Shown here piece by piece: positions 4,975 through 51,645 of a stretch of DNA of 64,000 nucleotides; the first letter of the stretch is position 1; each line of letters opens with the position of its first letter. Location: assembly GCF_000800805.1 (NCBI RefSeq), contig NZ_CP010070.1, positions 930,001-994,000 of the forward strand. Direction: 5' to 3'. Source of the stretch: Candidatus Methanoplasma termitum. GTDB taxonomy: Archaea > Thermoplasmatota > Thermoplasmata > Methanomassiliicoccales > Methanomethylophilaceae. Under the pieces are notes generated by a model that saw only the letters and a list, made by a program, of their open reading frames with translations, did no database searches and was not told the origin of the DNA. Made by a program: the position numbers and the translations under genes.

Positions 4975-5052
4975 TTGAACACCAGCCCACCCTATCTATT
5001 CTATTGATTATAAAGTATTCACCTCAACAACGATAATTAAAATTAAAAACAG

Positions 5053-5064
5053 TCTTTATAAATA
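5053..5064 (+). promoter_or_regulatory. TATA box upstream of adk
   Basis: CTTTATAAATA lies about 25-30 bases before the adk ATG at 5086. That is the spacing expected for an archaeal TATA element driving a leaderless or very short-leader transcript. Confidence 0.6.
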
Positions 5065-5085
5065 TGAAAGGGATAGGTCGGATAC

Positions 5086-5718
5086 ATGAAGACAAAGATC
5101 GTTCTCCTCGGTCCGCCGGGATCGGGGAAAGGAACTCAGGGGGAGAAACTCTGCGAGCAATACGGATTCGTCAAGTTGTCCACGGGGGACATGCTCAGGG
5201 AAGCTGTCAGAAAGGGTACGGCGCTCGGGGTAAAAGCGGACGGATACATGAAGAGCGGAGCACTCGTGCCGAACGACCTTATTATTGCTCTGATGAAAGA
5301 GAAGATCACTTCTCTTGATGAGGGTACAGGGATCATCTTCGACGGATTCCCGAGGACGGTCGAGCAGGCGAACGCGTTGGGGGAACAGGTGCATATCGAC
5401 CTTGCGCTGAACCTTGATGTCAACGATCAGGAGCTTATCGACAGGCTCACAAAGAGGCGCACATGCCCGAAGTGCAATGCTGTCTACCACCTGGAATACA
5501 ACCCTCCAAAGAGGGCCGGATTCTGCGACAAATGCCGCTCCGTCCTCGAATTAAGGAGCGATGACAGGGAAGAGACCGTGAGGAACAGGCTTAAAGTGTA
5601 CCGCGAGAGTACCCTGCCCCTTATCAAATATTACGAGAAAAAAGGAAATCTTGTAACGATCGAGGGTGTCGGCAGCATTGACGAGATCTTTGCAAAGGTG
5701 AAGAAGGCCGTCCTCTGA
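5086..5718 (+). CDS. adk: Adenylate kinase
   Basis: A 210-residue adenylate kinase that interconverts AMP plus ATP with two ADP. The P-loop GPPGSGKGT is at 9-17, the AMP-binding DGFPR near 86-90, and the LID carries a zinc site (C127, C130, C147, C150). This is the long-LID, bacterial-like form rather than the short archaeal AdkA. In many Euryarchaeota adk sits inside the ribosomal operon after secY. Here that position is empty and adk is a separate unit with its own TATA box. tRNA-Gln follows closely. Confidence 0.96.
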   Translation: MKTKIVLLGPPGSGKGTQGEKLCEQYGFVKLSTGDMLREAVRKGTALGVKADGYMKSGALVPNDLIIALMKEKITSLDEGTGIIFDGFPRTVEQANALGEQVHIDLALNLDVNDQELIDRLTKRRTCPKCNAVYHLEYNPPKRAGFCDKCRSVLELRSDDREETVRNRLKVYRESTLPLIKYYEKKGNLVTIEGVGSIDEIFAKVKKAVL

Positions 5719-5766
5719 TACAGAAAATTATTAAAAGTAATCTGTATTGAGGAAGGTTACTACAAC

Positions 5767-5842
5767 AGCCTCGTAGTGTAGTGGTCAATCATGCGGGACT
5801 CTGGATCCTGCGACCGCAGTTCGAATCTGCGCGAGGCTACCA
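5767..5842 (+). tRNA. tRNA-Gln (anticodon CTG)
   Basis: A cloverleaf can be drawn by hand. The 7-bp acceptor is AGCCTCG/CGAGGCT (5767-5773 with 5832-5838). The anticodon loop CTCTGGA contains CTG on a 5-bp stem with one G-U pair. The T arm is CGCAG-TTCGAAT-CTGCG. Discriminator A at 5839 is followed by an encoded CCA and then a T-run (5844-5849) that can serve as terminator. No intron is seen. The CTG anticodon reads CAG. Confidence 0.95.
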
Positions 5843-5899
5843 CTTTTTTCTGGCTTAGCCGTTCCTGAACCTCTTGGGGGTCTTGTTAAAAAAAGATTG

Positions 5900-5923
5900 A
5901 AGGGGGGAGACCGGCTCCCTTTA
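5900..5923 (-). terminator. Hairpin terminator of ALP1
   Basis: Read on the minus strand, an AAGGGAG/CTCCC stem is followed by a run of seven T (complement of 5888-5894). It lies about 45 bases after the ALP1 stop codon and between ALP1 and the convergent tRNA. Confidence 0.6.
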
Positions 5924-5967
5924 ATTTGGAAGAAGTGGTTTTTTTCCGTCTCCGGAACTGTCTGTGT

Positions 5968-8697
5968 TCATCGGGAACGGAACTCTATGAACACCTTGTC
6001 GACGATCTTTCCCCGAGGTATGATGTACTCCCCTTCCTCGTTTGGAGATATTGTCGTCCACTCTGCATCCTTATCCTCTCCGATGCGGTATTCCATGTCG
6101 CCGGTGTGTCCTTCGACCATGAAGCGGTACTCGCTCTTCCTATGCGCCCTCTCCGCTCCGATGGCTGCCTCTGGCTTGATCACCTCATAGTATCTTCTCC
6201 AGAAGATGAAGAACAGTATCAGGAGCCCCGCGGCGAACGCGAGGATTAACGTTCCTATGTAGGCCGACGAAGTGCCTTCCGGCTGGGTGCTGTCGATACC
6301 TGCCGCGACCGATTCTTTCTCATCGAAGTACACCTCCGAGTATATGGATACGGTCACGTTTTCAAAGGTCATTGCGGCCTCTTTGTATTTCATGCCGTTG
6401 AACACCCATTCAATGAACTGGTATCCATCGGCCGCATACGCTCTGACAGCCACGTTATCATACTTTTGCAGTGTGACAACGGAGTCATACTTAACGAACT
6501 GCGAACCGTTCACGCTGTATTCCGTGTGTCCTTTGCCTTTCATGATGTCAACGATGAGGGTTATTTTCACATCAACAGGCGTATCGGTCACATTATTAGA
6601 AGTCGGAGCGGTCTTGGCACTTACTATCTCGATCGTGTGGTTCTCCGCCACATTCTCGAAGGTGTAGCTGCCAGTACCGATCATGCTCTTCGAAATTGAT
6701 CTACCATCCACTATGACAGCCTTTATCTCATATCCTTTCAAGGCGCGGAATTTGAATGTTCCATCACTTCCTTCAAGGATAGACACTTCTCCGGACGGGT
6801 TTATGACAGACCCGGTGTCCGAGGTGGCAGTGATACAATAGCTTATCGGGCCCGGGACGGCATCCACCGTGAACCTGACCTCCACGGTCTCGGTGTTCAC
6901 CGGGTTGGAGTTATCGGATGACGGAGCGACCGTTACCGTTGCCGCATATGACCCGGGATCGAGACCGGTGTTCGGTACGATTGTGAATATCGCATTCCCT
7001 CCGGCAGCAATATCGCTTATTGCACCTGGGGAGACAGTGAAGGAAGAAGCATCCGCACCTGAAATAGTGACCGTCAGCTCACCTGTTGCACCTGTACCGA
7101 TGTTCGTCACTGTGACAGAGAACGGAGTCTGCGCAGAGTAACCCTGCGTTGCATCCTCGAATGTGTGATCGTTCTCACTCAGCACTATCCCGTACGTATA
7201 TGGGGTGGGGCCCTGGAAGTCAGCGATCAGTCTATTATTCTCAACTCTGACCGAAAAATCATGCCCCGCTCCGCTGAATATGGGGTTCTTCGGACTGCCT
7301 GTCGCTGTACCGCCGCTTATCAGCAAGAGCTTGTCGCCGACCTGCAGTGTCGACGGTATCCCGCTGACCTCAATGTCAACGGTTGCGGTGGCGGACCCTA
7401 TATCCGCCTTACCCTGTATCTTCACATACAGCAAAGCGTTCGGACTCCCCGTGAAGTTCAACTTTGACGTCGGGTCCGAGCCAATGGTGAAGTTGCCTGT
7501 GTTGCCGGTCCCGGTGTAATGGTATATACCGCTGCCGGCAGCAAAGGTGACATCGTTTGCAACATCGGCGAGGGTGACCGCACCGAAGAGATATTTTGTG
7601 TTTGTAAGTTTTATTGACGCCGCGTTGATCGCTTCGACAGCAACGGTGCCGCCGACATGACCTGCGTTGTAAAGTTCGCCGTCTGCGGCAAAGGTCACGC
7701 CGTTGCTTCCGCCCAGGATAATGCTGTCGGAGTTGTTGGTGATCTTCCCGCCGTTGAGATATATCCCATATCCGCAGCCTGCCGCTCCGATCGTACCGCT
7801 GTTGACAACCTGTCCGCCTCCTTTCATAAGGATAGTATTACCTGAGCCGATGATCGTACCGTCGGAGTTGTTGGTGACGGTAGAAGGGGCTTTGACATCG
7901 ATGGCATCGGTAAGATTGCCGACGCCGCGGATCGTGCCGCTGTTGGTCAGCGTGATACCGTTTGCAAAGATGACCGATGTTTCAGCACCCGAGCTTTCGA
8001 TGGAACTGTTAGGTTCATTGACTATTATGACGTCTGCGGTGGAATATATGGCATAACTTGTGCCACCGGAAGACATTATTTTGCCGCTGAGTTTGTCGTT
8101 GACGTAGTTGTTGATGATTGTCAGGTCCACCGCAGATGCGATGGCCTTGCTGTTCGATCCGGCGGGACTGATCGTGCCGTAGTTGGTGATGGAATTATTA
8201 TCTCCTTCCTTGACGTCTATGATCGTCTTGTTGCTGCTGTTGCATGAAATGCTTGCAGCGTTCACCAGACTGCCGCCTTTAAGCTGGACAGCCGTTCCTG
8301 AGGAACTCAGCCTGTCCCCCGTTTTCCCTTGACCATATAATGTCAGTCTTGCTCCGGATTGGATGCTGAATCCGTTATTTACCACATTCACAGATCCATC
8401 CAGGATCAGGTGGACGTCGCCGGTGATCTTTATGGTCTGAAAAACAGATTGGCCAGCGGCGATATACCAACCGGCGTCCAATTCATAAGATACGCCGGTC
8501 AGATATTCCGAAGTCACTTCGGTCACATCATTTTTGTACCCTGAAGTTCCGTCTGTGTCAATGTACATTATGCTATCTACTGTAGCTCCGTTCGCTTCAT
8601 TTTCTTGTTGCAGTAATAACACTGCAGCGGCAGAGATCACCAATACCGATACCAGTATCGCCATCACTGACAGATTGCAATGTTTTATCTTTTTCAT
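5968..8697 (-). CDS. Adhesin-like surface protein (ALP1)
   Basis: A surface protein of about 909 residues. It has an N-terminal hydrophobic export segment, then an N/G/T/S-rich region with repeats of the type found in right-handed beta-helix proteins, then a beta-sandwich segment (about 510-600), then two beta-rich modules. A strong transmembrane helix (GTLILAFAAGLLILFFIFW) follows, with a cytoplasmic tail of about 75 residues. The last modules and the tail layout match ALP3 at the right end of the window. Two starts are possible: ATG at 8697, used here, or TTG at 8712, which has a GGGGGG run 7 bases upstream. Expected to sit in the cell envelope; the ligand is unknown. Confidence 0.8.
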   Translation of the reverse strand: MKKIKHCNLSVMAILVSVLVISAAAVLLLQQENEANGATVDSIMYIDTDGTSGYKNDVTEVTSEYLTGVSYELDAGWYIAAGQSVFQTIKITGDVHLILDGSVNVVNNGFSIQSGARLTLYGQGKTGDRLSSSGTAVQLKGGSLVNAASISCNSSNKTIIDVKEGDNNSITNYGTISPAGSNSKAIASAVDLTIINNYVNDKLSGKIMSSGGTSYAIYSTADVIIVNEPNSSIESSGAETSVIFANGITLTNSGTIRGVGNLTDAIDVKAPSTVTNNSDGTIIGSGNTILMKGGGQVVNSGTIGAAGCGYGIYLNGGKITNNSDSIILGGSNGVTFAADGELYNAGHVGGTVAVEAINAASIKLTNTKYLFGAVTLADVANDVTFAAGSGIYHYTGTGNTGNFTIGSDPTSKLNFTGSPNALLYVKIQGKADIGSATATVDIEVSGIPSTLQVGDKLLLISGGTATGSPKNPIFSGAGHDFSVRVENNRLIADFQGPTPYTYGIVLSENDHTFEDATQGYSAQTPFSVTVTNIGTGATGELTVTISGADASSFTVSPGAISDIAAGGNAIFTIVPNTGLDPGSYAATVTVAPSSDNSNPVNTETVEVRFTVDAVPGPISYCITATSDTGSVINPSGEVSILEGSDGTFKFRALKGYEIKAVIVDGRSISKSMIGTGSYTFENVAENHTIEIVSAKTAPTSNNVTDTPVDVKITLIVDIMKGKGHTEYSVNGSQFVKYDSVVTLQKYDNVAVRAYAADGYQFIEWVFNGMKYKEAAMTFENVTVSIYSEVYFDEKESVAAGIDSTQPEGTSSAYIGTLILAFAAGLLILFFIFWRRYYEVIKPEAAIGAERAHRKSEYRFMVEGHTGDMEYRIGEDKDAEWTTISPNEEGEYIIPRGKIVDKVFIEFRSR

Positions 8698-8712
8698 GTT
8701 TTTATTAGACAA

Positions 8713-8968
8713 ATAATTGCCCCCCTGTTTTTATTCAGGATTCATAGATATAATCATTTCTATTAGATTGCTTAAAGTATCATTTATAATATTTATAAAT
8801 AACTATAATACTCTAATTTTTGTCAATTTACATTCATAGCATCCTCGCAGCACAAATAATTCATGTCTCTGTTGTAGACCTCGGGCCGAATAGCCACACA
8901 AGCCTATTTCCATAAATACCGCCTTGACGTTCCCTGATAAGATACACATGAATTGAGGTGATGGATAT
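8713..8968. promoter_or_regulatory. Divergent AT-rich promoter region, ALP1 / cation transporter
   Basis: A strongly AT-rich intergenic stretch. Around 8785-8812 it holds overlapping TATA-like sequences (ATTTATAAATA read on the minus strand) that would start ALP1 transcripts with a leader of about 60-75 bases. Just before the ALP1 start is AGGGGGGC (minus strand). On the + strand a clear Shine-Dalgarno GAGGTGATGG (8955-8964) serves the transporter. Confidence 0.5.
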
Positions 8969-10210
8969 ATGAGTTCCAGTAAAATCGTAAGCGGATTCTT
9001 CGGTCGTAACAGGGCCGTTTTCGTAATGGGGCTCACTGCGCTCGCCATAGCTGCGACTGCGGATCTCTTCGCCGGAATGCTTCTCGGTTCGATGGAAACG
9101 TACATACTTCTGATCCCTGGAATGATGGTCCTTGTCTACTCTGCGATCGGGATGAGGGGGAACATCTTCGGTGCTATGGGCTCAAGGCTCGGGACATCGA
9201 TGCACATGGGTACTTTCAAGATGTCCTTTAAGAAAGGGTCGATACTCAGGGCCAACATCGAATCTTCTATTGGGCTCAGCTTCCTGATCTCCCTTGCAAT
9301 GGGATTGATAGGATGGGCGATCGTTGTCCTTTTCAATTTCGGGGAGATCCATATTGCCAGCTTTGTGTTCATTTCCATGCTGGGCGGACTCATGGCCGGA
9401 ATAATCCTGCTGGGCGTTAACCTGACGATCGCAAGGACCGGTTTCAAAAGAGATTGGGACGTAGATAACATAACTGCACCGCTGATCGCGGCCGCCGGGG
9501 ACATAGTCACGATGCCTATGCTGTTCATATGCGCCTGGTTCGTCGTACACTGTCCAGATCAGAATATAATAAACATCCTTACCCTTCTGCTGATACTCGC
9601 GACCGTGGTCTTCCTTGTCATCATCTTTACAAGAAAGATCGTGCTCGGAAGGATGGACGAGGCAAAGAGAATAATCTCCCAATCCGCACCGATATTGGTA
9701 ATGTGTTTGATGTTAGACATTGCTGCGGGAATAATAATCGAGCACAGGACCCCGGAACTTCTTGTCCTTCCTGTGCTGGTGATATTGATGCCGGCCTTCC
9801 TGAATGAAGGAAATGCTCTATCGGGGATGCTTACTTCCAGACTGTCATCCATGCTGCATCTTGGTACGCTGGAGGTCAGCAGGTTCCCGGGAAAACGTGC
9901 GTATGAGAATTTCCTCATCACATACGTGCTGGCAGCTGTGACGTATGGATATATCGGAGTGATATCTTTCATCGCTGCGATGGCCATGGGCGGCACCGGC
10001 GACATCAGCTTTATAAAATTGATGGGAGTGATACTGCTCTCCGGAATGCTTACGGCAACGATCCTGAACTTCCTTTCATACTATGTGGCGGTGACCGCCG
10101 TAAGATTCAATCTTGATCCGGATGATCACAGCATACCTATGACATCCTCAACGATGGACCTCGTCGGTGCGGCTGTGCTGATCAATATCATTGTGTTACT
10201 AATACTATGA
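8969..10210 (+). CDS. MgtE/SLC41-type divalent cation transporter (two-repeat membrane protein)
   Basis: A 413-residue, highly hydrophobic protein built of two homologous halves, each with an MgtE-like motif: IGMRGNIFGAMGSRLGTSMHMG in pieces around 52-72, and the degenerate counterpart LNEGNALSGMLTSRLSSMLHLG around 277-298. It lacks the cytosolic N and CBS domains of bacterial MgtE, as in the archaeal stand-alone permease family (COG1824 type). It probably moves Mg2+ or another divalent cation. The two PhoU/TrkA-C genes at 11567-12831 are typical partners of this family, which supports a regulated transporter. GAGGTGATGG ahead of the ATG is a good ribosome binding site. Confidence 0.85.
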   Translation: MSSSKIVSGFFGRNRAVFVMGLTALAIAATADLFAGMLLGSMETYILLIPGMMVLVYSAIGMRGNIFGAMGSRLGTSMHMGTFKMSFKKGSILRANIESSIGLSFLISLAMGLIGWAIVVLFNFGEIHIASFVFISMLGGLMAGIILLGVNLTIARTGFKRDWDVDNITAPLIAAAGDIVTMPMLFICAWFVVHCPDQNIINILTLLLILATVVFLVIIFTRKIVLGRMDEAKRIISQSAPILVMCLMLDIAAGIIIEHRTPELLVLPVLVILMPAFLNEGNALSGMLTSRLSSMLHLGTLEVSRFPGKRAYENFLITYVLAAVTYGYIGVISFIAAMAMGGTGDISFIKLMGVILLSGMLTATILNFLSYYVAVTAVRFNLDPDDHSIPMTSSTMDLVGAAVLINIIVLLIL

Positions 10211-10303
10211 CGGAAGAATAATGGCTCAGGGAATTAAACAAGACGCACTCTCATGGTTCCTCTCATCTCCTAAACTTGTTCTCTCAGGCCGTTTTACAAC
10301 CTT

Positions 10304-10746
10304 TCATTCATCATTAGGGTTATCATTGATGTAGAGGTTTCTGCATGAACCGCCTTTGATCTCTACCCAGCTGTCTGAAAGATCATGTGACTCTTTCAGT
10401 CCTTTCATGCTCTTTTTTATCAGATCTATGTCGGGGTTTTCCTGAGACCCTTTATTATAGATCTCTATTAGTAGGAGAGAATCCTTATCCATTGAATATA
10501 AAATGCGGTATATTCCCTTTGCACCGGCAGACCTGCATGCAAATCTCTGTTCCTTGAAGACGGGTAAAAAGATGCCATGAGATCGGCCTACATCCTGCAT
10601 CCTCACGCTGCTACTTGTTGCGCGGCATAACCCAACAATGACCCTATTGAACGAATCCAGATCATCAAAAAGCGATTTATGATCTTTCTGGCACTTCTTC
10701 AGGCTTCTTTTGAAGCTTTTGGTGCAGTATATTTTGATTCACTCAC
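10304..10746 (-). CDS. RelE/ParE-like toxin gene, apparently frameshifted at its 5' end
   Basis: The readable product after the Panacea stop begins IKIYCTKSFKRSLKKCQKD and continues through GIYRILYSMDKDSLLLIEIYNKG. That is the usual RelE-fold pattern of basic N-terminal helices followed by a beta-sheet, at about 144 residues. No ATG/GTG starts this frame before 10606, which would lose the first 45 residues. A GTG at 10746 overlaps the antitoxin stop codon in the usual operon manner and encodes SESK, but it runs into a stop after 15 codons. Adding one A to the AAAA run (10732-10735) would join that start to the toxin frame. It is therefore either an inactivated toxin, a phase-variable run, or a sequence error. 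Toxin family is inferred by pattern only. Confidence 0.6.
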
Positions 10747-11326
10747 CATCTTCATCATCTTGTCCAGCATCAACCGAAGTGCACGGATCTCTGTACATGG
10801 CCGCACCATAATCTATTGGTTCGCCGTCTCTGGCAATCATCCATGGAACATCCATATGTGAGATCTCTTCGATTTCTCCGCCAGTCATGTCGCCATATCT
10901 TTCTATCGCACTTTCTATGGACATTATCTCTTCCGGAAGAAAATCGCTCATATCCGGATCCGTTAATGACCTATAGCGATATTGTTTATAGCCATCGAAC
11001 TGTTTTTTTTCAGCTGTTATCATCCCTTCTTTTTCGAGCGAATCGAATGATTCTTCATAGCTGAATGGTATAGGGCCATGAGGGGCCTTACAGTAGCTCT
11101 TGCCCGTTATAGATTTGAAGGTTCTCTCATAATGGTCAAAATCACTGAAGTAACATAGCTTGCAGAGGACTTTCTGCCCAACATTTTCTTTTTCGCCACA
11201 TCTTTTTATTATATAGTGTAGCATGTGTTCGAACTTCTGTCCACAATCAGAATTCGTCTTACTACCTCCCTCTCTATCACAATATTCATCGTAAGCATCT
11301 GATTTAAGACTATGTGAAGATAACAT
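10739..11326 (-). CDS. Panacea (SocA/DUF4065)-type antitoxin
   Basis: A protein of about 195 residues matching the Panacea pattern: VGQKVLCKLCYFSDFDHYERT, then KSITG, then KAPHGPIPF, and near the end LPEEIMSIESAIERYGDMTGGEIEEISH followed by PW. Panacea domains neutralise many unrelated toxins encoded next to them. The open frame begins at 11440, but the ATG at 11326 is preferred because AAGAGG lies 7 bases before it and the upstream 38 codons look non-coding. The stop overlaps the start region of the RelE-like gene, so the pair forms a candidate toxin-antitoxin operon lodged between a cation transporter and its usual partners. Confidence 0.8.
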   Translation of the reverse strand: MLSSHSLKSDAYDEYCDREGGSKTNSDCGQKFEHMLHYIIKRCGEKENVGQKVLCKLCYFSDFDHYERTFKSITGKSYCKAPHGPIPFSYEESFDSLEKEGMITAEKKQFDGYKQYRYRSLTDPDMSDFLPEEIMSIESAIERYGDMTGGEIEEISHMDVPWMIARDGEPIDYGAAMYRDPCTSVDAGQDDEDGE

Positions 11327-11566
11327 CGATAATCCTCTTAATAATAATTTAAGGGCGGGCTGTCGATGCGGACCGTCCCTCTTTTTACATTGCGCCCCTC
11401 TTCCGACGCGGACTTCGTTGTTATCACTATCTTTCCGCATACATCCATTTGCATTTCAGACACTATTATCTCGTGCATATTCATCCCAAGATACCTTATG
11501 TTCGGAAGATATTTTAACCTTCAATGGAAAAAGGGGTATTGCTAGTGATCGGACATTAGCTGGCAC

Positions 11567-12136
11567 TTACTTGTCTGTGCCTTCTGCCATGTATTTGAAC
11601 GCTGTGACCCCATCTTCCGGGCCCTTGGCAATCAGTATGTCGCCGGCCTCTATCTTTGTGTTCTTGCCCGGTCCGAAGATGTATTCTCTGTCCCTTTTTA
11701 TTGCAATGACGAACATTCCGCAGTGTGTGCACAGACGGACCTCACCGAATGACTTTCCGTCCAGAGGTGAGTTCTCTGTGACCTTGGCAAGGCTGATGAT
11801 CGTTTCCGATTCCTTTATCGACATTGCAATGACCGGGTGTTTACCCAATCCTCTCAGAACAACATCCGCTATCGATCTGGCGGCATCTGCGATGGACATT
11901 ATTGATGCCTGGAGCCTGATCATGACCACTATCCTGGCAACCTCCTCCGGCTTGTTCATCCCTATCTCTATGGCTTTCTCCTGCACTTCCAGGGAAAGGT
12001 TGTTCATCCTCTCTGCCAGGAAGATCACCTCCTCGGCTATCTCTTCATTGTCATAGATGAGTGACGAGTATGCCAGGTCGACCATGAACTCAGAAGTGTC
12101 CTTAAGCTCCAGGAGCATCTCCTCGATCTTGTTCAA
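11567..12136 (-). CDS. PhoU / TrkA-C (RCK_C) domain protein, second of pair
   Basis: 189 residues. The N-terminal helical PhoU-like half (about 1-105) is followed by an RCK_C/TrkA-C domain (about 110-186, ending IEAGDILIAKGPEDGVTAFKYM), which in related proteins binds small regulatory ligands. It has no membrane segment. The ATG overlaps the stop of its paralogue by four bases (12133-12136), so the two are co-translated and probably form a hetero-oligomer. In archaea such proteins (COG3273 type) accompany MgtE-like permeases, and the transporter at 8969 is the likely client. Confidence 0.85.
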   Translation of the reverse strand: MNKIEEMLLELKDTSEFMVDLAYSSLIYDNEEIAEEVIFLAERMNNLSLEVQEKAIEIGMNKPEEVARIVVMIRLQASIMSIADAARSIADVVLRGLGKHPVIAMSIKESETIISLAKVTENSPLDGKSFGEVRLCTHCGMFVIAIKRDREYIFGPGKNTKIEAGDILIAKGPEDGVTAFKYMAEGTDK

Positions 12137-12831
12137 TTCTCTTCCTCCTCTTCGGGCTCGTTTATGCTGGCTGCCTCTTCCTGCGGGGTTGTCTCTTCTT
12201 CATCCTCGGATACTTCGGGGAACTCCCAGGGTTTGCTTCCGGTTGTGTACTCGACAAGATGCTTGTATCCATCATCACTGCCTCTTATTATTACGTCATC
12301 TCCGGCTCTTATCTTGATGTCGTCATCGGGGTCGTACGTCCAGCCCTGACGATTCTTCATTGCTATTATCCTGCAGCCGGTGCATGCTTCCACGCCGAGT
12401 TTTCCTATTGTGTACCCGACCATGGAGGATTCGGGCTTGACCTTTGTGGCGCGGATCTTCTCATCCGACTCAGACAGCATGGCCGATACGAACGGACGCC
12501 TTTCGAGCGGGAGGCTCAGGAGATTGACTATGTCCACCGCCGCATCTGATATAATGTCTGCTGCGGATGCTACTTGGAGCAACCCGGACAGCTGCTGTGC
12601 GTCCCGCTTGTTCCTTGATGCCATGAGCACCTTGAAACGGATAGCATACTTCAGATTTGTCATCTCTTTTTCCAGCTCATTGACCTTCTCGGCCATATCC
12701 TCGCTGTTATACAGCAGAGCGGCGTATGCCAGATCCACTATCACCTCTGAAGTGTCCTTCATTTCGGTCAAAAGTTCACGAACTGTCTTCTCAACATGTT
12801 CCATGCTCGTATATTCCGGGTCCGGCATCAC
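12133..12831 (-). CDS. PhoU / TrkA-C (RCK_C) domain protein, first of pair
   Basis: 232 residues with the same order as its downstream paralogue: PhoU-like helices (about 15-120), an RCK_C domain (about 128-203, IRAGDDVIIRGSDDGYKHLVEY), then a very acidic tail rich in E. It is expected to be a cytosolic regulator of ion transport acting with the next gene. A TATA-like sequence with an imperfect dyad (ATACG...CGTAT at 12939-12953) lies about 110 bases upstream and may be its promoter. Confidence 0.85.
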   Translation of the reverse strand: MMPDPEYTSMEHVEKTVRELLTEMKDTSEVIVDLAYAALLYNSEDMAEKVNELEKEMTNLKYAIRFKVLMASRNKRDAQQLSGLLQVASAADIISDAAVDIVNLLSLPLERRPFVSAMLSESDEKIRATKVKPESSMVGYTIGKLGVEACTGCRIIAMKNRQGWTYDPDDDIKIRAGDDVIIRGSDDGYKHLVEYTTGSKPWEFPEVSEDEEETTPQEEAASINEPEEEEEN

Positions 12832-14030: not shown

Positions 14031-14106
14031 CCGCTCTGCCGGCACACATTCAGCTGTCTTTCGAAACATTATATTATAGCAAAGGCTATTTGGGCTGAGG
14101 CAGACG

Positions 14107-15264
14107 ATGATAAGCAGAGATGAGGTTCTGGCAAACCTTGACAAATATGACATTAAAAAAACCAAGATAGGAGTTGTTGCATCGCATTCCGCACTGGATA
14201 CCTGCGACGGGGCGATATCCGAAGGTTTCAACACCGTTGCTGTCTGCCAGAAAGGAAGGGAGAAGACCTTCGCCAACTATTTCAGGACCCAGCGCGATGC
14301 TTCCGGCAATGTTCAAAGGGGAGTCATCGACGAGATCGTCCTTGTGGACAAGTTCAAAGACACCGTACTTCCGAAGGTTCAGAATTCTCTGATGAAGAAC
14401 AACGTGCTTTTCGTACCGAACAGATCGTTCGTGTCGTATTGCGGCATTGACGCGGTCGAAGATGACTTCAAGGTCCCGATCGTCGGAAGCAGGAACCTCC
14501 TCAGATCCGAGGACCGTGGCGGCGAGAGAGACTATTATTGGATACTTGAGAAGGCGGGCCTTCCGTTCCCGAAGAAGGTCAATAGGCCCGAGGACATAGA
14601 CAGCCTCACCATAATTAAAGTGCACCATAAAGTGAAGAAGCTCGAAAGAGGATTCTTCACTGCGAAGGATTATGATCAGTTCGTCGAAAAATCGACAGAA
14701 CTTATCAAACAAGGCGTTATCGAAGAGGATTTCCTCAAAGAAGCAAGAATGGAGCAGTACATCATCGGCCCCGTTTTCAATCTGGATTTCTTCCGTTCCC
14801 CCCTTGAGAAGAAAGGAGAACAACTCGAACTCCTGGGAGTGGATTGGAGGTTCGAAACTTCCCTTGACGGGTACTGCAGGCTCCCTGGGAAACAGCAGGT
14901 AGAGCTGGAGAACGATGGAATAATCCCGGAATACACAGTGTGCGGCCACAACTCGGCCACTCTCAGAGAATCTTTGCTGGATAATGCGTTCGAGATGGCT
15001 GAAAAGTACATTGCGGCGACGAAGAAATACTACAATCCGGGCGTTATCGGCCCATTCTGTTTGCAAACGTGCGTGGACAAAGACCTTAACTTCTACATTT
15101 ACGATGTTGCCCCCCGCATAGGCGGAGGCACCAACGTTCATATGTCCGTCGGACATCCTTACGGCAACGCCCTGTGGAGAAAGGAGATGAGCACGGGAAG
15201 GAGACTTTCCATGGAGATAAGAAGAGCGATCGAACAGGAACGCATTGATGAGATCATTACATAA
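14107..15264 (+). CDS. purP: Formate-dependent FAICAR synthetase (PurP)
   Basis: A 385-residue archaeal ATP-grasp enzyme that formylates AICAR with free formate and ATP in purine synthesis, replacing the folate-dependent PurH step. Recognisable parts are the N-terminal VVASHSALDTCDGAISEGF, the middle NRSFVSYCGID, and the C-terminal YDVAPRIGGGTNVHM. The length is normal. The ATG follows a TGAGGCAGACG stretch carrying a weak ribosome site. It is followed after 9 bases by a membrane protein gene. Confidence 0.93.
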   Translation: MISRDEVLANLDKYDIKKTKIGVVASHSALDTCDGAISEGFNTVAVCQKGREKTFANYFRTQRDASGNVQRGVIDEIVLVDKFKDTVLPKVQNSLMKNNVLFVPNRSFVSYCGIDAVEDDFKVPIVGSRNLLRSEDRGGERDYYWILEKAGLPFPKKVNRPEDIDSLTIIKVHHKVKKLERGFFTAKDYDQFVEKSTELIKQGVIEEDFLKEARMEQYIIGPVFNLDFFRSPLEKKGEQLELLGVDWRFETSLDGYCRLPGKQQVELENDGIIPEYTVCGHNSATLRESLLDNAFEMAEKYIAATKKYYNPGVIGPFCLQTCVDKDLNFYIYDVAPRIGGGTNVHMSVGHPYGNALWRKEMSTGRRLSMEIRRAIEQERIDEIIT

Positions 15265-15273
15265 GGTGAGTAA

Positions 15274-16170
15274 ATGAACAAAAATAAGACACTATTGGCT
15301 CTTGCCTTCGTCATTCTGGCAGTTGCGCCGATGAGTATAATTCTCATCGGTGAGCAGTCGAATGCATACGTGAGCATGAGCGATGACTCGGCCAGAGTAT
15401 GGGGGGAGGGGTTCACCACCAACGGCAACGGAACGCTCCACGTAATATTGAAGAATAATGACGAATTCAACAATTCTGAACAGATAACGCTATCCGTCCA
15501 TGATAAAACAATAGACGGCCCCGTACTTGCGACCAGTTCACCGGTAATAGTGCCTGCCGGCGGCACCTATGAAGTACAGATCAGTTTCAATATCGGCTCT
15601 GCCGGAGAACACAGTCTGGCAGTGACCGGTGAACCTGCAAATCAATTCCCTGTCGACGGTCAGGGTAACCATGCCAACTTCATCTCTACGGTATCGGTGA
15701 CTGTAAAGGAATCTATTCTCAGCAAGCCGACAACGTACATAGCGATCGCAGTGGTTGCCATCTTGATAGCCATCGCCGTCTTCATGCATATGCGCAACAC
15801 GCCTGCGAAGAAACCGGACACAACATTCACTGAACTTGAAGAACAGAAGAGGGCTTCAAAAGGTGGAGCGGACAGCGCTCCGAAGACATCTGCGACGGAA
15901 AAGAAAAGATACGATAAAGCTTCTACAACAGAACCGCCCAAGGCCACGCCCAAAGAAAAAGCAAAGCCTGCTGCGGAAGAGAAGAAGTCTCCAAAGGAGA
16001 AGACTCAGCCCAAAGAGAGCACAAAACCTGCTCAGGAAGAGAAGAAAGCGACCACTTTCACCGAGCTTGAGAAGGAAAAATCCAGCAAGAAGGACGCAGT
16101 AACCAACAAGGAGTCCTCCTCTTCCGAAGAGCCGAAGAAGCTCAAGTACGTGAGCTCCAGAAGGAAATAA
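15274..16170 (+). CDS. Envelope protein with signal peptide, one membrane anchor and charged tail
   Basis: 298 residues. A signal peptide (about 1-27) is followed by a beta-rich external domain (about 30-145) resembling CARDB/Ig-like modules, then a transmembrane helix (about 152-172), then a cytoplasmic tail of about 125 residues that is almost pure K, E, P, S, T and A. The tail contains two copies of TTFTELE followed by E/K-rich sequence, about 68 residues apart. GGTGAG before the ATG is a usable ribosome site. I do not recognise a family; the tail could be a flexible docking region. Confidence 0.75.
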   Translation: MNKNKTLLALAFVILAVAPMSIILIGEQSNAYVSMSDDSARVWGEGFTTNGNGTLHVILKNNDEFNNSEQITLSVHDKTIDGPVLATSSPVIVPAGGTYEVQISFNIGSAGEHSLAVTGEPANQFPVDGQGNHANFISTVSVTVKESILSKPTTYIAIAVVAILIAIAVFMHMRNTPAKKPDTTFTELEEQKRASKGGADSAPKTSATEKKRYDKASTTEPPKATPKEKAKPAAEEKKSPKEKTQPKESTKPAQEEKKATTFTELEKEKSSKKDAVTNKESSSSEEPKKLKYVSSRRK

Positions 16171-25379: not shown

Positions 25380-25760
25380 TCAGAGGTATTTGCCGAGACC
25401 CAGTTGTTCCATCCAGTATTTGAGGTATGTTACCTTCTCATACGTTACCCACGCACGGACCGTCATACCGTTGGAAAGGTTTACCTTACCGCCCTTGGAA
25501 TCCTGTATATAATCGGCATCGAAACTCACTTTGACCCTGAAGTATGCACCACCCTCTTGGGTGATGGCATCACTTGAGATGCTCTCCACCGTACCGTTAA
25601 TAGATCCATATTCTGTCTGTGCCAGTCCATCAATTGTGAAGTTACACTCCTGACCCACGTCTATCAACGCTCTCTGCGCCGCTGTTATGTACAGGTCAAC
25701 ATATCGATCGGCAATGGGGTTGCTTACGCTCCCGATCATACTCCCGGCCTGCAACGTCAT
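25380..25760 (-). pseudogene. 5'-truncated HlyD-type membrane fusion protein (exporter subunit remnant)
   Basis: Only the C-terminal 126 or so residues of a HlyD/peptide-export adaptor remain: a barrel-sandwich half (GMTLQAGSMIGSVSNP), a beta-barrel (LYITAAQRALIDVGQECNF) and the distal segment ending GMTVRAWVTYEKVTYLKYW. Full-length relatives have 400-500 residues with an N-terminal membrane helix, and none of that is present upstream. The frame stays open a little past the first ATG (to about 25790, HFNFIKTG), so the break lies just where the divergent peptide gene begins. Such adaptors normally work with ABC exporters of double-glycine peptides. Truncation is clear; family assignment is good. 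Confidence 0.7.
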
Positions 25761-25817
25761 ACCTGTCTTTATGAAATTAAAATGCCGGCAAGGTATGTCG
25801 AGCTGTCGGAAGACTAG

Positions 25818-26111
25818 ATGGAATATAAAGGTGGATTCTTTTGGATACCGATTTGCGCTGCGATATCTGCAGCATGCACAGTTGTGGGCGTAGTAGCTAC
25901 AGTCGCTAATGCGGCAGGGTTAATTTCAGATAAAACTGCTAACTCCATACAGGCGGTTACAACCGTTGTCGGTGTCGCAACGGGTATTGCAAGTGGCGTT
26001 GGTACGCTTTGGACATCCACGGCAACAACGGCCACCAAAGTATTGGCAAAGGCTACATACAACGTTGCAGTTAGTCCTGGAGTGAACATCGTAACATATC
26101 CACTCACTTAA
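25818..26111 (+). CDS. Small hydrophobic glycine-rich peptide, bacteriocin-like candidate
   Basis: A 97-residue peptide. A short start ending in GG (MEYKGG) is followed by FFWIPICAAISAAC and then a long A/V/G/T-rich helix-prone region with GxxxG spacing (GVATGIASGVGTL). It has no charged cluster typical of a cytosolic protein. The composition resembles pore-forming class II bacteriocins. An in-frame ATG at 25782 would add 11 residues but is separated by a TAG codon (25815-25817). Next to it are an exporter-adaptor remnant and two membrane proteins, the usual company of peptide toxins. I do not recognise a named family; function is inferred. Confidence 0.5.
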   Translation: MEYKGGFFWIPICAAISAACTVVGVVATVANAAGLISDKTANSIQAVTTVVGVATGIASGVGTLWTSTATTATKVLAKATYNVAVSPGVNIVTYPLT

Positions 26112-26143
26112 ATTACATAAACATCTTTTTTATTTTTGATAAC

Positions 26144-26788
26144 ATGAAAAGAACAAAAAAAGTATGGATAGCAACAATCGCTGTGTGCCTTTCAATCTCT
26201 CTGTTTGGCATATTTGAGAGGAACAGATATGTTTTGATCTCTGCCTCTGTTCTGTTCTTCATGCTGTCTTCATATATTTTAACCAATAATGTCAATGACG
26301 ATCTGAACAAAAATAGAGCAACAGCTGCATTTTATTCAGTCTATGTTCCCGGGGCGGGACACTTCTACCTCCGCCAATATCGGAGCGGTTCACTGTTTCT
26401 TACTGCTTATGTCCTGCTGATTGGTAATTTCTCTTTACTCGCAGTATTTCCCTCAGACAGTAATGCAATAGCCGTATTTTCCTCATTTTTTGCACTATTA
26501 TTGAGTATGTTCGCTCTTTCAATAATAGATACGGAATATGCGTGCAATAGCCTCGGTATGCCATACAGTGGAAACCCATATGAGGTTAAAATCGAAAAAT
26601 ATTCTCGCGCCTACGCTTCATCAGTATTATTCCCATTTGCAATTGTGATAGCAGTATTTCTTGGGACCACATTACTAAAAATAAACATTAATACGGATGT
26701 TTGGTTGGTGATTTTTGTTCTGTGGGCAATTGCATTAGCAATTAGCATTACATGGATCATAAAGAGAAGAAATGTTACGACCGAATAA
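26144..26788 (+). CDS. Multi-pass membrane protein, TM2-like segment
   Basis: A 214-residue protein with about six hydrophobic helices. The segment YVPGAGHFYLRQYRSGSLFLTAYVLL resembles the TM2 domain (PGxGHFYLG...), found in small membrane proteins of unclear role. Base composition is visibly AT-richer than the housekeeping genes on either side, which suggests acquisition. It starts 32 bases after the small hydrophobic peptide on the same strand, so an immunity or export role is possible but unproven. Confidence 0.65.
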   Translation: MKRTKKVWIATIAVCLSISLFGIFERNRYVLISASVLFFMLSSYILTNNVNDDLNKNRATAAFYSVYVPGAGHFYLRQYRSGSLFLTAYVLLIGNFSLLAVFPSDSNAIAVFSSFFALLLSMFALSIIDTEYACNSLGMPYSGNPYEVKIEKYSRAYASSVLFPFAIVIAVFLGTTLLKININTDVWLVIFVLWAIALAISITWIIKRRNVTTE

Positions 26789-27048
26789 GTTAAAAAGAAT
26801 ACTGATTCAAAGGTTATGATTTCACGACCCCTGCAATTCGAAACTTCGTGCCAAGCGCATCTAATCCTTTTCTGACTTTTTATTCGTAGTTCTGGAAACA
26901 GATTTTGTTATCTCACGGCCGTAGAATGAGCATATGCTTGCAATGCAAGCGGCTCCGCAGTCGGAAGAATCGTGTTGCTGTATGTGAGGGAACTTCACAC
27001 AAAACAATAGAGTAAACGAAATAAAACAATATGTGAATATCCGGCATA
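26789..27048 (+). other. Intergenic region with small palindrome
   Basis: 260 bases of moderate AT content. A 7-bp dyad GCTTGCA/TGCAAGC sits around 26936-26950. A 29-codon open stretch starting near 26926 encodes a cysteine- and arginine-rich peptide but has no clear ribosome site. I see no RNA gene. It may carry the promoter for the next membrane protein. Confidence 0.35.
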
Positions 27049-27738
27049 ATGGAGATAAGCATTATAGGACTCATGAAGAGCGCGCACATAGCAACATTGG
27101 GTATGCTTGTCCTTTTTATTGTAGTAATCCCGCCATTTACAATGGCTATACCGACCGTCGCTTTCGCGATGATTGGGTTTGCGTGGATGATGTTTGTTCA
27201 TTTCCTGATGAATTTTCCTATTATATCGGAAAAAGAAATGCTTCTATATTCGGAATCGGAGTCCGAAGAGTTCATAAATCTAAAGCTAAAAGCAACAGTC
27301 AAATTATTGGTCATTGGAACCGTTCTCACAGTCTTGCTTTTTATAGTATTTTCAAGCATTGCTTATATTGACACTGAATCGGCAATACCTCGTATCGATG
27401 CGGTTAGTGCTTTTGTGCTATTCTCTGCAACCTTTATGCCGTTCATTCCCGCAACACTTTCTTTGATGAGTGCGTCATACACTTATGACGCAAAGAATAT
27501 GGGGATATTGACCATATTCTTGGTCGTTTTATTATGGGTATTGGTTGTGGTGCCACTACTTAACTCTGGCCTGATGTCTGACAGCTTCATACCGGAAGTG
27601 CCGTCTTTGAACACATTCTCATATGTGATAGTTGGGGTCGCAGTTATGGTCGTGTCAATATTACTATCAACCATACTGTTAAAAAACATCAAGAGGGCTT
27701 TCAAGATACATGTTTTTGAATATGGATATCATCTCTAA
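27049..27738 (+). CDS. Six-helix membrane protein of unknown function
   Basis: A 229-residue protein with about six transmembrane helices and a short acidic loop (LLYSESESEEF) after helix two. No recognised motif. AT-rich like its upstream neighbour. It might be the second membrane component of the peptide locus (immunity or transport), but the 260-base gap argues for separate transcription. The ATG at 27049 is used; a second ATG at 27073 is possible. Confidence 0.6.
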   Translation: MEISIIGLMKSAHIATLGMLVLFIVVIPPFTMAIPTVAFAMIGFAWMMFVHFLMNFPIISEKEMLLYSESESEEFINLKLKATVKLLVIGTVLTVLLFIVFSSIAYIDTESAIPRIDAVSAFVLFSATFMPFIPATLSLMSASYTYDAKNMGILTIFLVVLLWVLVVVPLLNSGLMSDSFIPEVPSLNTFSYVIVGVAVMVVSILLSTILLKNIKRAFKIHVFEYGYHL

Positions 27739-36118: not shown

Positions 36119-36792
36119 TCCTCCTTGGGTTCGACATCGGTCTCGGATATCCTTATCCCGACCGGTCCGGGCACGATCTTGAGCCTTGAGGCCTGTTCTT
36201 CGGTGACCCTCATCTTGGCCGTCATCTTAAGGGCTTCGAACGTGGCCATCGCATAATTGACCTTGGTCTTTGTGTTGCCTGTCGCGAAACCCCATGCGTC
36301 CTGCACTCCGGCAAGCGTCAGAAGCTTCTTTGCGACGTCTCCGACCGCGAGCGAGATGCCGCGCGGTGCGGGTTTAAGGTAAACGGTGACTGAGCCTGTG
36401 CGTCCGATGACCTCGAAGGGAAGCGTGTGCGGCTGTCCGCATCCGCATTCCCATGATCCGCATCCCCTTTTCACTTCGATGATGTTGAGCTTTGCGTTGT
36501 CGATGGCTTTTTTGATAGACGGTCCGACCTCTTTTCCTTTTGCCCTTCCGATGCCGATGTATCCGTCGCCGTTCCCCACGATGCAGGTGACCGCGAATCT
36601 CACTCTTCTTCCGGAGTCGGTCATCCTCTGGACCATGTTGAGGTCTATGACCTCGTCCTGCAGGTCCGGCAGGAGTATGTCCACTATCTCGGCCTCACGG
36701 AGAGGCAGCCTTGATTCCAATGCGGCGCTCATGGTAGTGATCTCGCCGTTCAGGACCATCTGTCCCAATCTTGTCTTCGGGATCCATTCCAT
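36115..36792 (-). CDS. rps5: 30S ribosomal protein S5 (uS5)
   Basis: 225 residues. It has the double-stranded RNA-binding-like S5 N-domain (VRFAVTCIVGNGDGYIGIGRAKGKE) and the C-domain. The open frame begins at 36822, but the ATG at 36792 follows the L18 stop directly and has GGAGG from the L18 end in front of it. A Cys-rich insert (CGSWECGCGQ) is common in archaeal S5. Confidence 0.95.
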   Translation of the reverse strand: MEWIPKTRLGQMVLNGEITTMSAALESRLPLREAEIVDILLPDLQDEVIDLNMVQRMTDSGRRVRFAVTCIVGNGDGYIGIGRAKGKEVGPSIKKAIDNAKLNIIEVKRGCGSWECGCGQPHTLPFEVIGRTGSVTVYLKPAPRGISLAVGDVAKKLLTLAGVQDAWGFATGNTKTKVNYAMATFEALKMTAKMRVTEEQASRLKIVPGPVGIRISETDVEPKEE

Positions 36793-36793
36793 T

Positions 36794-37294
36794 TTAATCA
36801 GCCTCCATCTTCTTCTTGACACTCTTGATCGCGGCCTCTATGCCGCCGTCGATGTGCTTTCCATTGATGCGGTCCTTTGTCGGGACGATATCCTTGCTGT
36901 GAGGCACTTCCAATCCCGCATCGGTCATTCCCTTCACCGTAGCGAACAATACGCCGCCGTGCTTCGGGTTCTGCATACCTATATCCAGAACGGCATACTC
37001 GATGCCGTTCTTCAACGCTCTCTTGCCCGCAAGGTATCCCACAAGGTACGCAGCGGGGATCGAGGAGCACGAATACTCCCATCCCATCTTGCGCAGCTCT
37101 TTGGTCGTTGCCGCGGCTCTGACAATATCTCCGCCCATGTCGAAATCGACGAATTGAACGGTAACGTTCCTGTTGGACCTTCTTACCACTGCCCTGGACT
37201 CTCCGCTCCTTAGGAGCCTCTTCCTGGCGTAATAGTCGGTACGGTATTCCCTTCTCCTTCTGAACGCAACTTTATATCTTGGTCCTGTCGCCAT
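36794..37294 (-). CDS. rpl18: 50S ribosomal protein L18 (uL18)
   Basis: 166 residues, the archaeal L18 that binds 5S rRNA. The N-terminal YKVAFRRRREYRTDYYARKR is diagnostic. Start overlaps the eL19 stop by one base (TAATG). Ends one base before S5. Confidence 0.95.
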   Translation of the reverse strand: MATGPRYKVAFRRRREYRTDYYARKRLLRSGESRAVVRRSNRNVTVQFVDFDMGGDIVRAAATTKELRKMGWEYSCSSIPAAYLVGYLAGKRALKNGIEYAVLDIGMQNPKHGGVLFATVKGMTDAGLEVPHSKDIVPTKDRINGKHIDGGIEAAIKSVKKKMEAD

Positions 37295-39409: not shown

Positions 39410-39556
39410 TCACGAATATTTCTTGAATCCCAGTTCCGGGGCCATTTCCCTGAAACATTGGCGGCAGAGGTGCATTCCGTATCTTCTTATGATGCCTCTT
39501 CTGCGTCCGCAGCGGGTGCATCCCACCAATCTACCGAATTTCTTCTTTGGTTTCAC
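39410..39556 (-). CDS. rps14: 30S ribosomal protein S14 (uS14), zinc-binding
   Basis: A 48-codon gene translated by hand. It begins with GTG ([17 protein letters not shown]) and ends ELGFKKYS. Four cysteines (CTRC and CRQC) form the zinc site expected for this small archaeal S14. The GTG overlaps the L5 stop as GTGA, so translation is coupled. Order L5-S14-S8 is conserved. Confidence 0.93.
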
Positions 39557-40062
39557 TCAACCACCTCTATCTCATAGTTCTCTTTCATGTATTGTATTGC
39601 CTCATCGCGCTGGACGCGGTGGTGCTTGGGTATCTTTCTTCTGAGAAGCGCCCTTTGGGTGATCCTGTTGCCTGTCCTTCTCAGGACGACGTTGACATCC
39701 ATTCCGAATATCCCTATCTCGGGGTCGTATTTCATCCCCTCAAAATCGGTGTAATCGGATATCCCGAAGGACATGTTCCCTTCTTTGTCGAAGGAGTACT
39801 CGTATATCTTTCTCTCTCTGATGGGCAGCGCCCTCTCCAAGAAGTTATTCGCCGCATCTCCTCTGAGGGTGACCTTGCATCCGAGAGGCATTCCGACGCG
39901 TATACCCAGATCCCTGTTGACAGCTTTGGATATCGTCTGTACCGACTTCTGGCCGGTGACCATTTCCAGGACCTTCTGGGCCTTTGCGAGCCTCTCTCCG
40001 GCCTCTCCGACGCCGATGTTGACCGTCACTTTTTCAATGTGTATATCTCTCATCGCGTTCAT
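39553..40062 (-). CDS. rpl5: 50S ribosomal protein L5 (uL5)
   Basis: 169 residues, 5S rRNA-binding. The diagnostic segments [20 protein letters not shown] and [13 protein letters not shown] are present. Start overlaps the S4e stop by four bases. Confidence 0.95.
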
Positions 40063-40766
40063 TCGGATGCCTCCGGGAGTTTTATCTCCGGCCTCGACGA
40101 GCCGATTATGAATGCGTTCTTCCTGACAGTCTCGATGCCGCTGCTGAATCTTACGACATCGTCGGCGGATCCTTTGACCTCCACCCGCTTCTCGATGGTC
40201 TCGACCTTACCAGCCAGAGCACCGTTTATGATCAGCGCCGCCGCGCCTGGCGCCAGGGGGAAACTTCCGAGTATCTTTTGGTCGACGACATCTATCTTAA
40301 GCGTGTCGCCAGTCTTGTACTTGTTCTTGTCAAGGACTATGTTCCTTCCTCCGCTGAGGTTGAGCTGGATCTTTCCTCCGCTGATCTTGGTCTTGTTCTC
40401 GATCCTGCAGAGTTTCCATGTGGCCTCGTCCGCGGATATCGGCACCAACGTCAGTTTTCCTTTGTCGGTCAGCAACATGCGGTAGTTGAGGTCCATCTTT
40501 GGTACGGATATTGTATCCATGACGCCTACCGGCGCTTTCGGGTTCTTTACAGGGGTGCCGTCCACGAGCATCTCGCGGTTGCCGATGATCCTTTTTGCCT
40601 CCCTTCCGGTGTCGCAAGCTTTTATCATGTCCCTGAGCACCATCGCCGCAGGCATGCTGCTTTCGATCGAGTGTGCTCCGGGGGACGGTTTGGTCGCCCA
40701 GACGTGCGCCTTCCTCTTAAGAGGCCATGTCGCCGGTGCGGCTAATCTCTTCATGTGGTCGCTCAT
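40059..40766 (-). CDS. rps4e: 30S ribosomal protein S4e (eS4)
   Basis: 235 residues, archaeal/eukaryal-only. N-terminal HMKRLAAPATWPL (split by a single residue shift from the start), an S4-like RNA-binding domain (REMLVDGTPVKNPKAPVG), and a KOW-like C-terminus. Overlaps L24 by four bases. Confidence 0.95.
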   Translation of the reverse strand: MSDHMKRLAAPATWPLKRKAHVWATKPSPGAHSIESSMPAAMVLRDMIKACDTGREAKRIIGNREMLVDGTPVKNPKAPVGVMDTISVPKMDLNYRMLLTDKGKLTLVPISADEATWKLCRIENKTKISGGKIQLNLSGGRNIVLDKNKYKTGDTLKIDVVDQKILGSFPLAPGAAALIINGALAGKVETIEKRVEVKGSADDVVRFSSGIETVRKNAFIIGSSRPEIKLPEASE

Positions 40767-51132: not shown

Positions 51133-51278
51133 CTCATGCCTGATTCAAACGGCCCTTCCGGCGTGAGTTTTCTCAACCTGAACGATAGAGTTCACAACAT
51201 CAATCCATACAGATATCCTGAGCGGTACGGCCTGAAGCTTGCTCATATTGCGTAAAAAAGGAATATTTGGGGTTTTGA

Positions 51279-51308
51279 ACACCTGCCGGCGTGACTACCG
51301 GCAGGTGT
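51279..51308 (-). terminator. Terminator-like hairpin after surface-protein tail copy 2
   Basis: Perfect 11-bp stem ACACCTGCCGG/CCGGCAGGTGT with an 8-base loop, almost identical to the copy at 49116 and related to that at 53253. Confidence 0.65.
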
Positions 51309-51346
51309 TCTTTGTTAAGGTTTGGGAATCTGTTTGTGTCGTCCGG

Positions 51347-51590
51347 TTACGCTTTAGACCTCCTGTACAACAGGAACGCTATCGCCGCGATGATCACTAT
51401 TATCACGATGACGATCGCCACCCAGAGAAGGGTGTTGCTTCCTCCGCCGGGGTTGCCCGCGTCATCGTTGACCGTGAGCGTCAGGTCGGATGTTCCGTCA
51501 GTGTACACCGCTGTGGAGTGATACGTTCCGGGTCCGAAACCATTCACGTAACTTCACTTCAGCGTTATCGCCGTGTTGTCCGTGACGGCT
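51347..51590 (-). pseudogene. Decayed 3' fragment of an ALP2-like surface protein gene (tail copy 2)
   Basis: Encodes NGFGPGTYHSTAVYTDGTSDL, then NPGGGSNTLLWVAIVIVIIVI and the final YRRSKA, nearly identical to the ALP2 end. Going upstream, the conserved LKESYV has become LK-stop-SYV, and the match fades by about 51590. It is therefore shorter and more decayed than copy 1. No start or signal peptide. Confidence 0.8.
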
Positions 51591-51645
51591 TCCTAAAACT
51601 TTCTACTTTTACGATTATTGGATTTATGGCCGTCATCCCTCATCC

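What the first reader, a model, noticed from the sequence alone, without database searches (positions are those of the whole stretch)
25380..27738. Possible archaeal bacteriocin locus in an AT-rich island
A 97-residue glycine/alanine/valine-rich peptide with GxxxG motifs and a GG near its start lies divergent to a truncated HlyD-type peptide-export adaptor and upstream of two multi-pass membrane proteins. The segment is visibly AT-richer than pheS/trpS on one side and the MFS gene on the other. Peptide toxin, adaptor and membrane immunity proteins are the typical parts of bacterial bacteriocin clusters; archaeal examples in this lineage are little described. The exporter appears broken, so the peptide may be orphaned or may use another exporter in the genome.
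Basis: inference. Interest (0 to 1): 0.65.

Follow-up and report, generated by a model that had tools for sequence, protein, structure and literature searches.

The report
Broken archaeal bacteriocin-like export locus
This is the broken remnant of a peptide-toxin-like secretion locus in a termite-gut methane-making archaeon; an intact copy lies elsewhere in the same genome and related ones occur across its family, so archaeal 'bacteriocins' of the bacterial type can now be tested directly.

Summary
The 97-residue ORF is the core of a double-glycine-leader precursor. Its leader lies just upstream in frame (25764-25817) and carries an in-frame TAG. The start codon and upstream sequence seen in relatives are gone, because the leader abuts a C-terminal HlyD fragment. 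About 18 of 147 genomes of the order carry the same leader (PxxYVELSxEEMEYDGG). Many have a complete cassette: precursor, multi-pass membrane partner, C39 ABC exporter, GyrI/DUF5085-like protein and HlyD. This genome, probably Ca. Methanoplasma termitum, has one intact cassette at about 1.174-1.179 Mb. Firmicutes carry the same operon with the same kind of leader, which suggests inter-domain transfer. Most likely this is a class-II-bacteriocin-like system: peptide exported and cleaved by the C39 exporter, with the TM2-like protein as self-immunity. The window copy is a pseudogene, possibly with a surviving orphan immunity gene. Antimicrobial activity is untested. The genome decodes TAG as pyrrolysine, so read-through of the leader TAG is possible but unlikely to matter here.

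The parts
25380..25763 (-). C-terminal remnant (about 127 of about 350 aa) of an HlyD-type export adaptor
   Evidence: HlyD_3 E 9e-10; TIGR01843 E 1e-15, profile 313-409 of 422; 67% identity to full-length HlyD of G005
25763..25764 (.). junction: HlyD homology ends and precursor-leader homology begins; the relatives' start codon and ribosome-binding sequence are missing
   Evidence: comparison with L036 12200-12300; no in-frame ATG/GTG/TTG between the stop at 25575 and ATG 25782
25764..25835 (+). double-glycine leader remnant CLYEIKMPARYVELSED[TAG]MEYKGG
   Evidence: leader profile A1 (window sequence not in it) E 5e-13 with 1 TAG; alignment of 14 leaders
25815..25817 (+). in-frame TAG in the leader, where homologues mostly have Glu
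25818..26111 (+). 97-aa ORF of the finding: last 6 leader residues (MEYKGG) plus the intact hydrophobic Gly/Ala/Val/Thr-rich core
   Evidence: homologues E 4e-23 to 1e-7 in 5 genomes; alignment A2
26144..26788 (+). 214-aa multi-pass membrane protein with a TM2-like PGxxHxYL motif; putative immunity partner, 32 nt after the peptide
   Evidence: adjacent to the peptide in 4 other genomes; family search; 7-sequence alignment; all-helical model pLDDT 77
26906..26998 (-). N-terminal remnant (31 aa, GTG start) of a C39-peptidase ABC exporter: VKFPHIQQHDSSDCGAACIASICSFYGREIT
   Evidence: PF03412 E 3e-6; 90% identity to the G005 exporter
27049..27738 (+). 229-aa multi-pass membrane protein divergent from the C39 remnant; role unknown
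   Evidence: one homologue among 50 relatives (G015, 32% identity, E 7e-22)

Best explanation
The window holds the decayed remnant of a class-II-bacteriocin-like secretion locus. In intact relatives a precursor with a conserved double-glycine leader is made, a C39-peptidase ABC exporter with an HlyD adaptor cuts it after GG and exports the hydrophobic helical core (about 75-110 aa), and the co-encoded multi-pass TM2-like protein protects the producer. Here a rearrangement deleted most of the exporter operon and left the precursor-plus-TM2 pair lying between an HlyD C-terminal piece and a C39 N-terminal piece. The precursor lost its start and upstream sequence, and its leader carries a TAG. It is therefore most likely not made as an exportable precursor; the TM2-like protein may survive as orphan immunity. 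Shown: anatomy, homology, decay, and an intact paralogous cassette at about 1.174-1.179 Mb. Inferred: cleavage at GG, toxicity, immunity.
For: Leader match with TAG. Homologous cores with intact leaders and the adjacent TM2-like gene in relatives. Complete divergent cassettes, precursor <-> C39-ABC / 155-aa protein / HlyD. Exporter over the TIGR01193 cut-off, 594.6 against 523.85 bits. HlyD and C39 remnants in the window. Intact cassette in the same genome. Tandem two-precursor loci and multi-copy arrays. The same operon in Firmicutes, one precursor of which nearly reaches Bacteriocin_IIc (24.8 bits, cut-off 27.1).
Against: The core and the TM2-like ORF carry no stop or frameshift, so the damage is recent or partial. 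ATG 25782 followed by TAG read-through would still give a leader holding the conserved PxxYVELS...MEYxGG motif. There is no direct evidence of killing, and GG-exported peptides can also be signals. No bacteriocin family model matches the archaeal peptides above cut-off.
Confidence: 0.72

Rival explanations
1. The orphan precursor is still made: translation starts at ATG 25782, the TAG is decoded as pyrrolysine, and the shortened leader is recognised by the intact C39 exporter at about 1.176 Mb acting in trans.
For: PylS over cut-off and two MtmB genes with in-frame TAG show that the genome decodes TAG as Pyl. A relative, M. alvus, is reported to have 1.6% TAG stops and 16 further putative Pyl proteins (PMC4153887). 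In the window at most 5 of 54 long ORFs end in TAG, none with a Pfam match. The intact exporter's own precursor has a similar leader.
Against: No visible ribosome-binding sequence before 25782, and the upstream region is antisense HlyD remnant. No homologue found has TAG in the leader. The intact exporter belongs to a different clade. A single substitution in an already truncated gene needs no function.
Confidence: 0.1
2. The peptides are intercellular signals or surface/biofilm factors exported by the C39 system, not toxins.
For: GG-leader/C39 systems also export signals; Makarova et al. 2019 left 'bacteriocin-like toxin or quorum sensing' open for an archaeal island of this kind (PMC6393860).
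Against: Divergent cores under one conserved leader, tandem duplicated precursor/membrane pairs and patchy distribution look like conflict systems. The cores are long and hydrophobic, unlike typical short pheromones.
Confidence: 0.13
3. The ORF starting at 25818 is a small membrane protein in its own right (start MEYKGG), unrelated to export.
For: ATG 25818 is preceded by a weak GGAAG ribosome-binding-like sequence.
Against: The upstream frame matches the export leader at E 5e-13, and MEY-GG is itself the end of that leader in the homologues.
Confidence: 0.05

Closest known systems
Class II (double-glycine leader) bacteriocin loci of Firmicutes; Pfam Bacteriocin_IIc PF10439; exporter TIGR01193
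   Same: GG leader, C39-peptidase ABC exporter (over the TIGR01193 cut-off), HlyD-type accessory protein, hydrophobic helical core, adjacent multi-pass membrane protein, tandem two-precursor loci
   Different: Archaeal host; leader PxxYVELSxEEMEYDGG; the archaeal precursors match no bacteriocin model over cut-off; TM2-like membrane partner; a GyrI/DUF5085-like protein between exporter and adaptor; the window copy is broken
Unnamed C39-ABC / GyrI-like / HlyD operons with EMEY(V/I)DGG-leader peptides in Haloplasma, an Acholeplasma MAG and Eubacterium callanderi
   Same: Same three-gene exporter operon, same leader end (EMEYxDGG), membrane-protein partners
   Different: Bacterial; the two archaeal exporter clades are separated by bacterial ones; no documented activity found
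Archaeal C39/double-glycine island of Makarova et al. 2019 (Fig. 2E, PMC6393860)
   Same: Archaeal locus with a C39 peptidase and several GG-leader proteins, duplicated genes, proposed as bacteriocin-like or quorum sensing
   Different: Organism and sequences are not given in the text read, so identity with this family could not be checked; no leader consensus, TM2 partner or GyrI-like gene is described there
Known archaeocins (halocins, sulfolobicins)
   Same: Archaeal antimicrobial proteins or peptides (from general knowledge)
   Different: Not known to use GG leaders with C39-ABC/HlyD export (from general knowledge, not tested here)

Membership tests
Class II bacteriocin (GG-leader) system | precursor with double-glycine leader | tested here: met
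   14-leader alignment with conserved P, Y, E, GG; window leader E 5e-13, interrupted by TAG
Class II bacteriocin (GG-leader) system | dedicated C39-peptidase ABC exporter plus accessory HlyD protein | tested here: met
   met for the family and for the intact copy in this genome; in the window itself only remnants
Class II bacteriocin (GG-leader) system | match to a curated bacteriocin precursor family | tested here: not met
   window and archaeal precursors: no bacteriocin model over cut-off; Firmicutes relative 24.8 bits against cut-off 27.1 for PF10439
Class II bacteriocin (GG-leader) system | adjacent immunity protein | tested here: inconclusive
   a multi-pass membrane protein follows most precursors, but the immunity role is untested
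Class II bacteriocin (GG-leader) system | antimicrobial activity of the mature peptide | not testable with these tools
   needs experiment
TM2 domain family (PF05154) | score over the Pfam gathering cut-off | tested here: not met
   14.9 bits against 27.9: TM2-like only
Pyrrolysine-containing protein | organism decodes TAG as Pyl | tested here: met
   PylS and MtmB with in-frame TAG
Pyrrolysine-containing protein | TAG conserved in homologues or shown to be read through | tested here: not met
   none of the homologous leaders found has TAG; read-through itself not testable here

The most novel reading that the evidence does not exclude
The leader TAG is decoded as pyrrolysine, so export of this archaeal bacteriocin-like peptide through the second, intact C39 exporter depends on pyrrolysine supply and hence on the methylamine-linked Pyl machinery: a peptide toxin under genetic-code control.
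Probability: 0.06. Interest if true: 0.85.

Novelty: new variant of a known kind. Interest (0 to 1): 0.5.

Why it matters
Peptide warfare by archaea is little known. This defines a leader-based family in gut methanogens, with an intact cassette in a genome that matches the complete one of Ca. Methanoplasma termitum. One can therefore test whether methanogens make class-II-type bacteriocins, whom they kill, and whether TM2-like proteins give immunity. The Firmicutes operons suggest that the system crossed between domains in animal guts.

Tried and rejected
Fold of the peptide: AlphaFold mean pLDDT 51, three helices, too poor to search. Fold search of the TM2-like model: no PDB match with E below 0.9. 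The 8-sequence peptide alignment was too variable for contig scans. A viral-contig scan with leader peptides confirmed no relative, and plasmids held no relative of the GyrI-like protein, so there is no sign of phage or plasmid carriage. No tRNA lies near the locus in the window, unlike the G006 copy. Weak Pfam hits of the peptide (Adeno_PX, DUF4389) and of the 229-aa protein (Orai-1) are below cut-off and were dismissed. dN/dS was not attempted: homologues are at most 54% identical, synonymous sites would be saturated, and no second strain was available.

Full report
What is in the window. The segment 26.0-27.9 kb is AT-rich (GC 0.38-0.41 against 0.506 overall); the HlyD fragment and the peptide are close to average.

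The peptide gene is longer than the ORF. Translating upstream of ATG 25818 gives CLYEIKMPARYVELSED[TAG]MEYKGG. The same leader, YEMKMPxxYVELSxEEMEYDGG, precedes the homologous cores in related genomes. A profile of 14 leaders that does not contain the window sequence finds it at E 5e-13 with one TAG. So the 97-aa 'peptide' is the end of a double-glycine leader plus its core. Core homologues: G007 54% identity, G006 48%, G012 45%, G005 42%, G043 40%.

The locus is broken. HlyD homology on the minus strand covers only the C-terminal third and runs to about 25763 (67% identity to G005 HlyD). Precursor homology starts at 25764: TGTCTTTATGAA is shared with L036, but the L036 start codon and its upstream purine-rich stretch are replaced by HlyD sequence. 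There is no in-frame ATG, GTG or TTG between the stop at 25575 and ATG 25782. A TAG then follows at 25815, where most homologues have Glu. At 26906-26998(-) are the first 31 residues of a C39-peptidase ABC exporter (PF03412 E 3e-6; 90% identity to G005). The exporter operon has thus lost most of C39-ABC, the middle gene and the HlyD N-terminus, and the peptide plus TM2-like pair lies in the gap in the opposite orientation.

Intact relatives show what it was. In G005, G006, G014, G002, G051 and G043 a leader-bearing precursor lies beside a complete C39-ABC, 155-aa protein and HlyD operon, mostly divergently. The G006 exporter scores 594.6 bits against the TIGR01193 bacteriocin_ABC cut-off of 523.85. 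The 155-aa protein is conserved and weakly GyrI/DUF5085-like, below Pfam cut-offs. Precursors are usually followed by a multi-pass membrane protein, often with a PGxxHxYL TM2-like motif. G007 and G012 have two precursor-membrane pairs in tandem, G003 has a TM2-like array, and G118 has ten leader matches. At E 1e-4, 18 of 147 genomes of the order carry the leader, all in one family.

This genome has an intact cassette. At about 1.1740-1.1787 Mb (L031) are a 144-aa precursor (leader LPNGYVDIDSDEMEYITGG), a 130-aa membrane protein, the GyrI-like protein, HlyD and C39-ABC. Its exporter is of another clade than the eight others, but the leader motif is similar, so use in trans by an orphan precursor cannot be excluded.

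Who it is. The genome (one contig of 1,488,669 bases) fits the published Ca. Methanoplasma termitum MpT1 (complete, 1.49 Mb; PMC5011839). This is an inference, not a proven identity.

Origin. The GyrI-like protein finds Haloplasma, Acholeplasma, Clostridiales, Faecalibacterium and Eubacterium callanderi. In the Haloplasma and Acholeplasma records and in E. callanderi, the C39-ABC, GyrI-like and HlyD genes sit with precursors whose leaders end in EMEY(V/I)DGG (the Acholeplasma contig starts inside the ABC gene). In E. callanderi a precursor reaches 24.8 bits to Bacteriocin_IIc (cut-off 27.1). In a small tree the archaeal exporters form two clades separated by bacterial ones, which fits two transfers; the sampling is thin.

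Pyrrolysine. The genome has PylS and two MtmB genes with in-frame TAG. In the related M. alvus TAG stops are rare, and in-frame TAG is thought to be read as Pyl (PMC4153887). Read-through of the leader TAG is therefore possible, but the gene has also lost its start region and no homologue shares the TAG, so I read it as a decay mark.

Function. By analogy with class II bacteriocins the intact systems should export a helical membrane-active peptide and protect the producer with the membrane partner. Export by C39 is strongly supported by anatomy; toxicity and immunity are inference. A signalling role is the main rival. Makarova et al. 2019 made the same two-way proposal for an archaeal C39/GG island (PMC6393860). 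I found no paper in the held library that describes this family in Methanomassiliicoccales, but the library is incomplete.

Noticed in passing
L031 (G000:C1:1166001-1186000) 7981-12731: Intact bacteriocin-like cassette in the same genome, next to two genes that look like transposases (4697-6136 and an IS110-like 6409-7542, by eye); GC of its genes 0.35-0.46.
   Followed up: partly
L110 (G003:C14:272001-290000) 6700-11500: Array of about six TM2-like membrane proteins in a row near leader-like peptides: possible immunity array.
   Followed up: partly
L137 2678-6852 and L135 8467-11325: Acholeplasma and Haloplasma records with GG-leader peptides (leader ...EMEYVDGG) and membrane partners beside C39-ABC/GyrI-like/HlyD; no NCBIfam family over cut-off for the peptides scanned.
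   Followed up: partly
L044 and L045 (G040, G055): A different RiPP-like locus: two 92-aa Cys-rich peptides with a Nif11-like leader (by eye), a 494-aa protein and a C39-ABC exporter.
   Followed up: no
L034 1199-1540 (G012:C65): Second precursor of a tandem pair has a TAA in its leader: another decaying copy in the genus.
   Followed up: no
L033 4340-4400 (G006:C70): The closest TM2-plus-peptide relative lies directly beside what looks like a tRNA gene (by eye), possibly an integration site.
   Followed up: no
window 11295-12056, 14086-15291, 36383-37213, 39493-40485, 51236-51751: The only long ORFs of the window that end in TAG; none has a Pfam match, so TAG may be nearly unused as a stop in real genes here.
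   Followed up: partly
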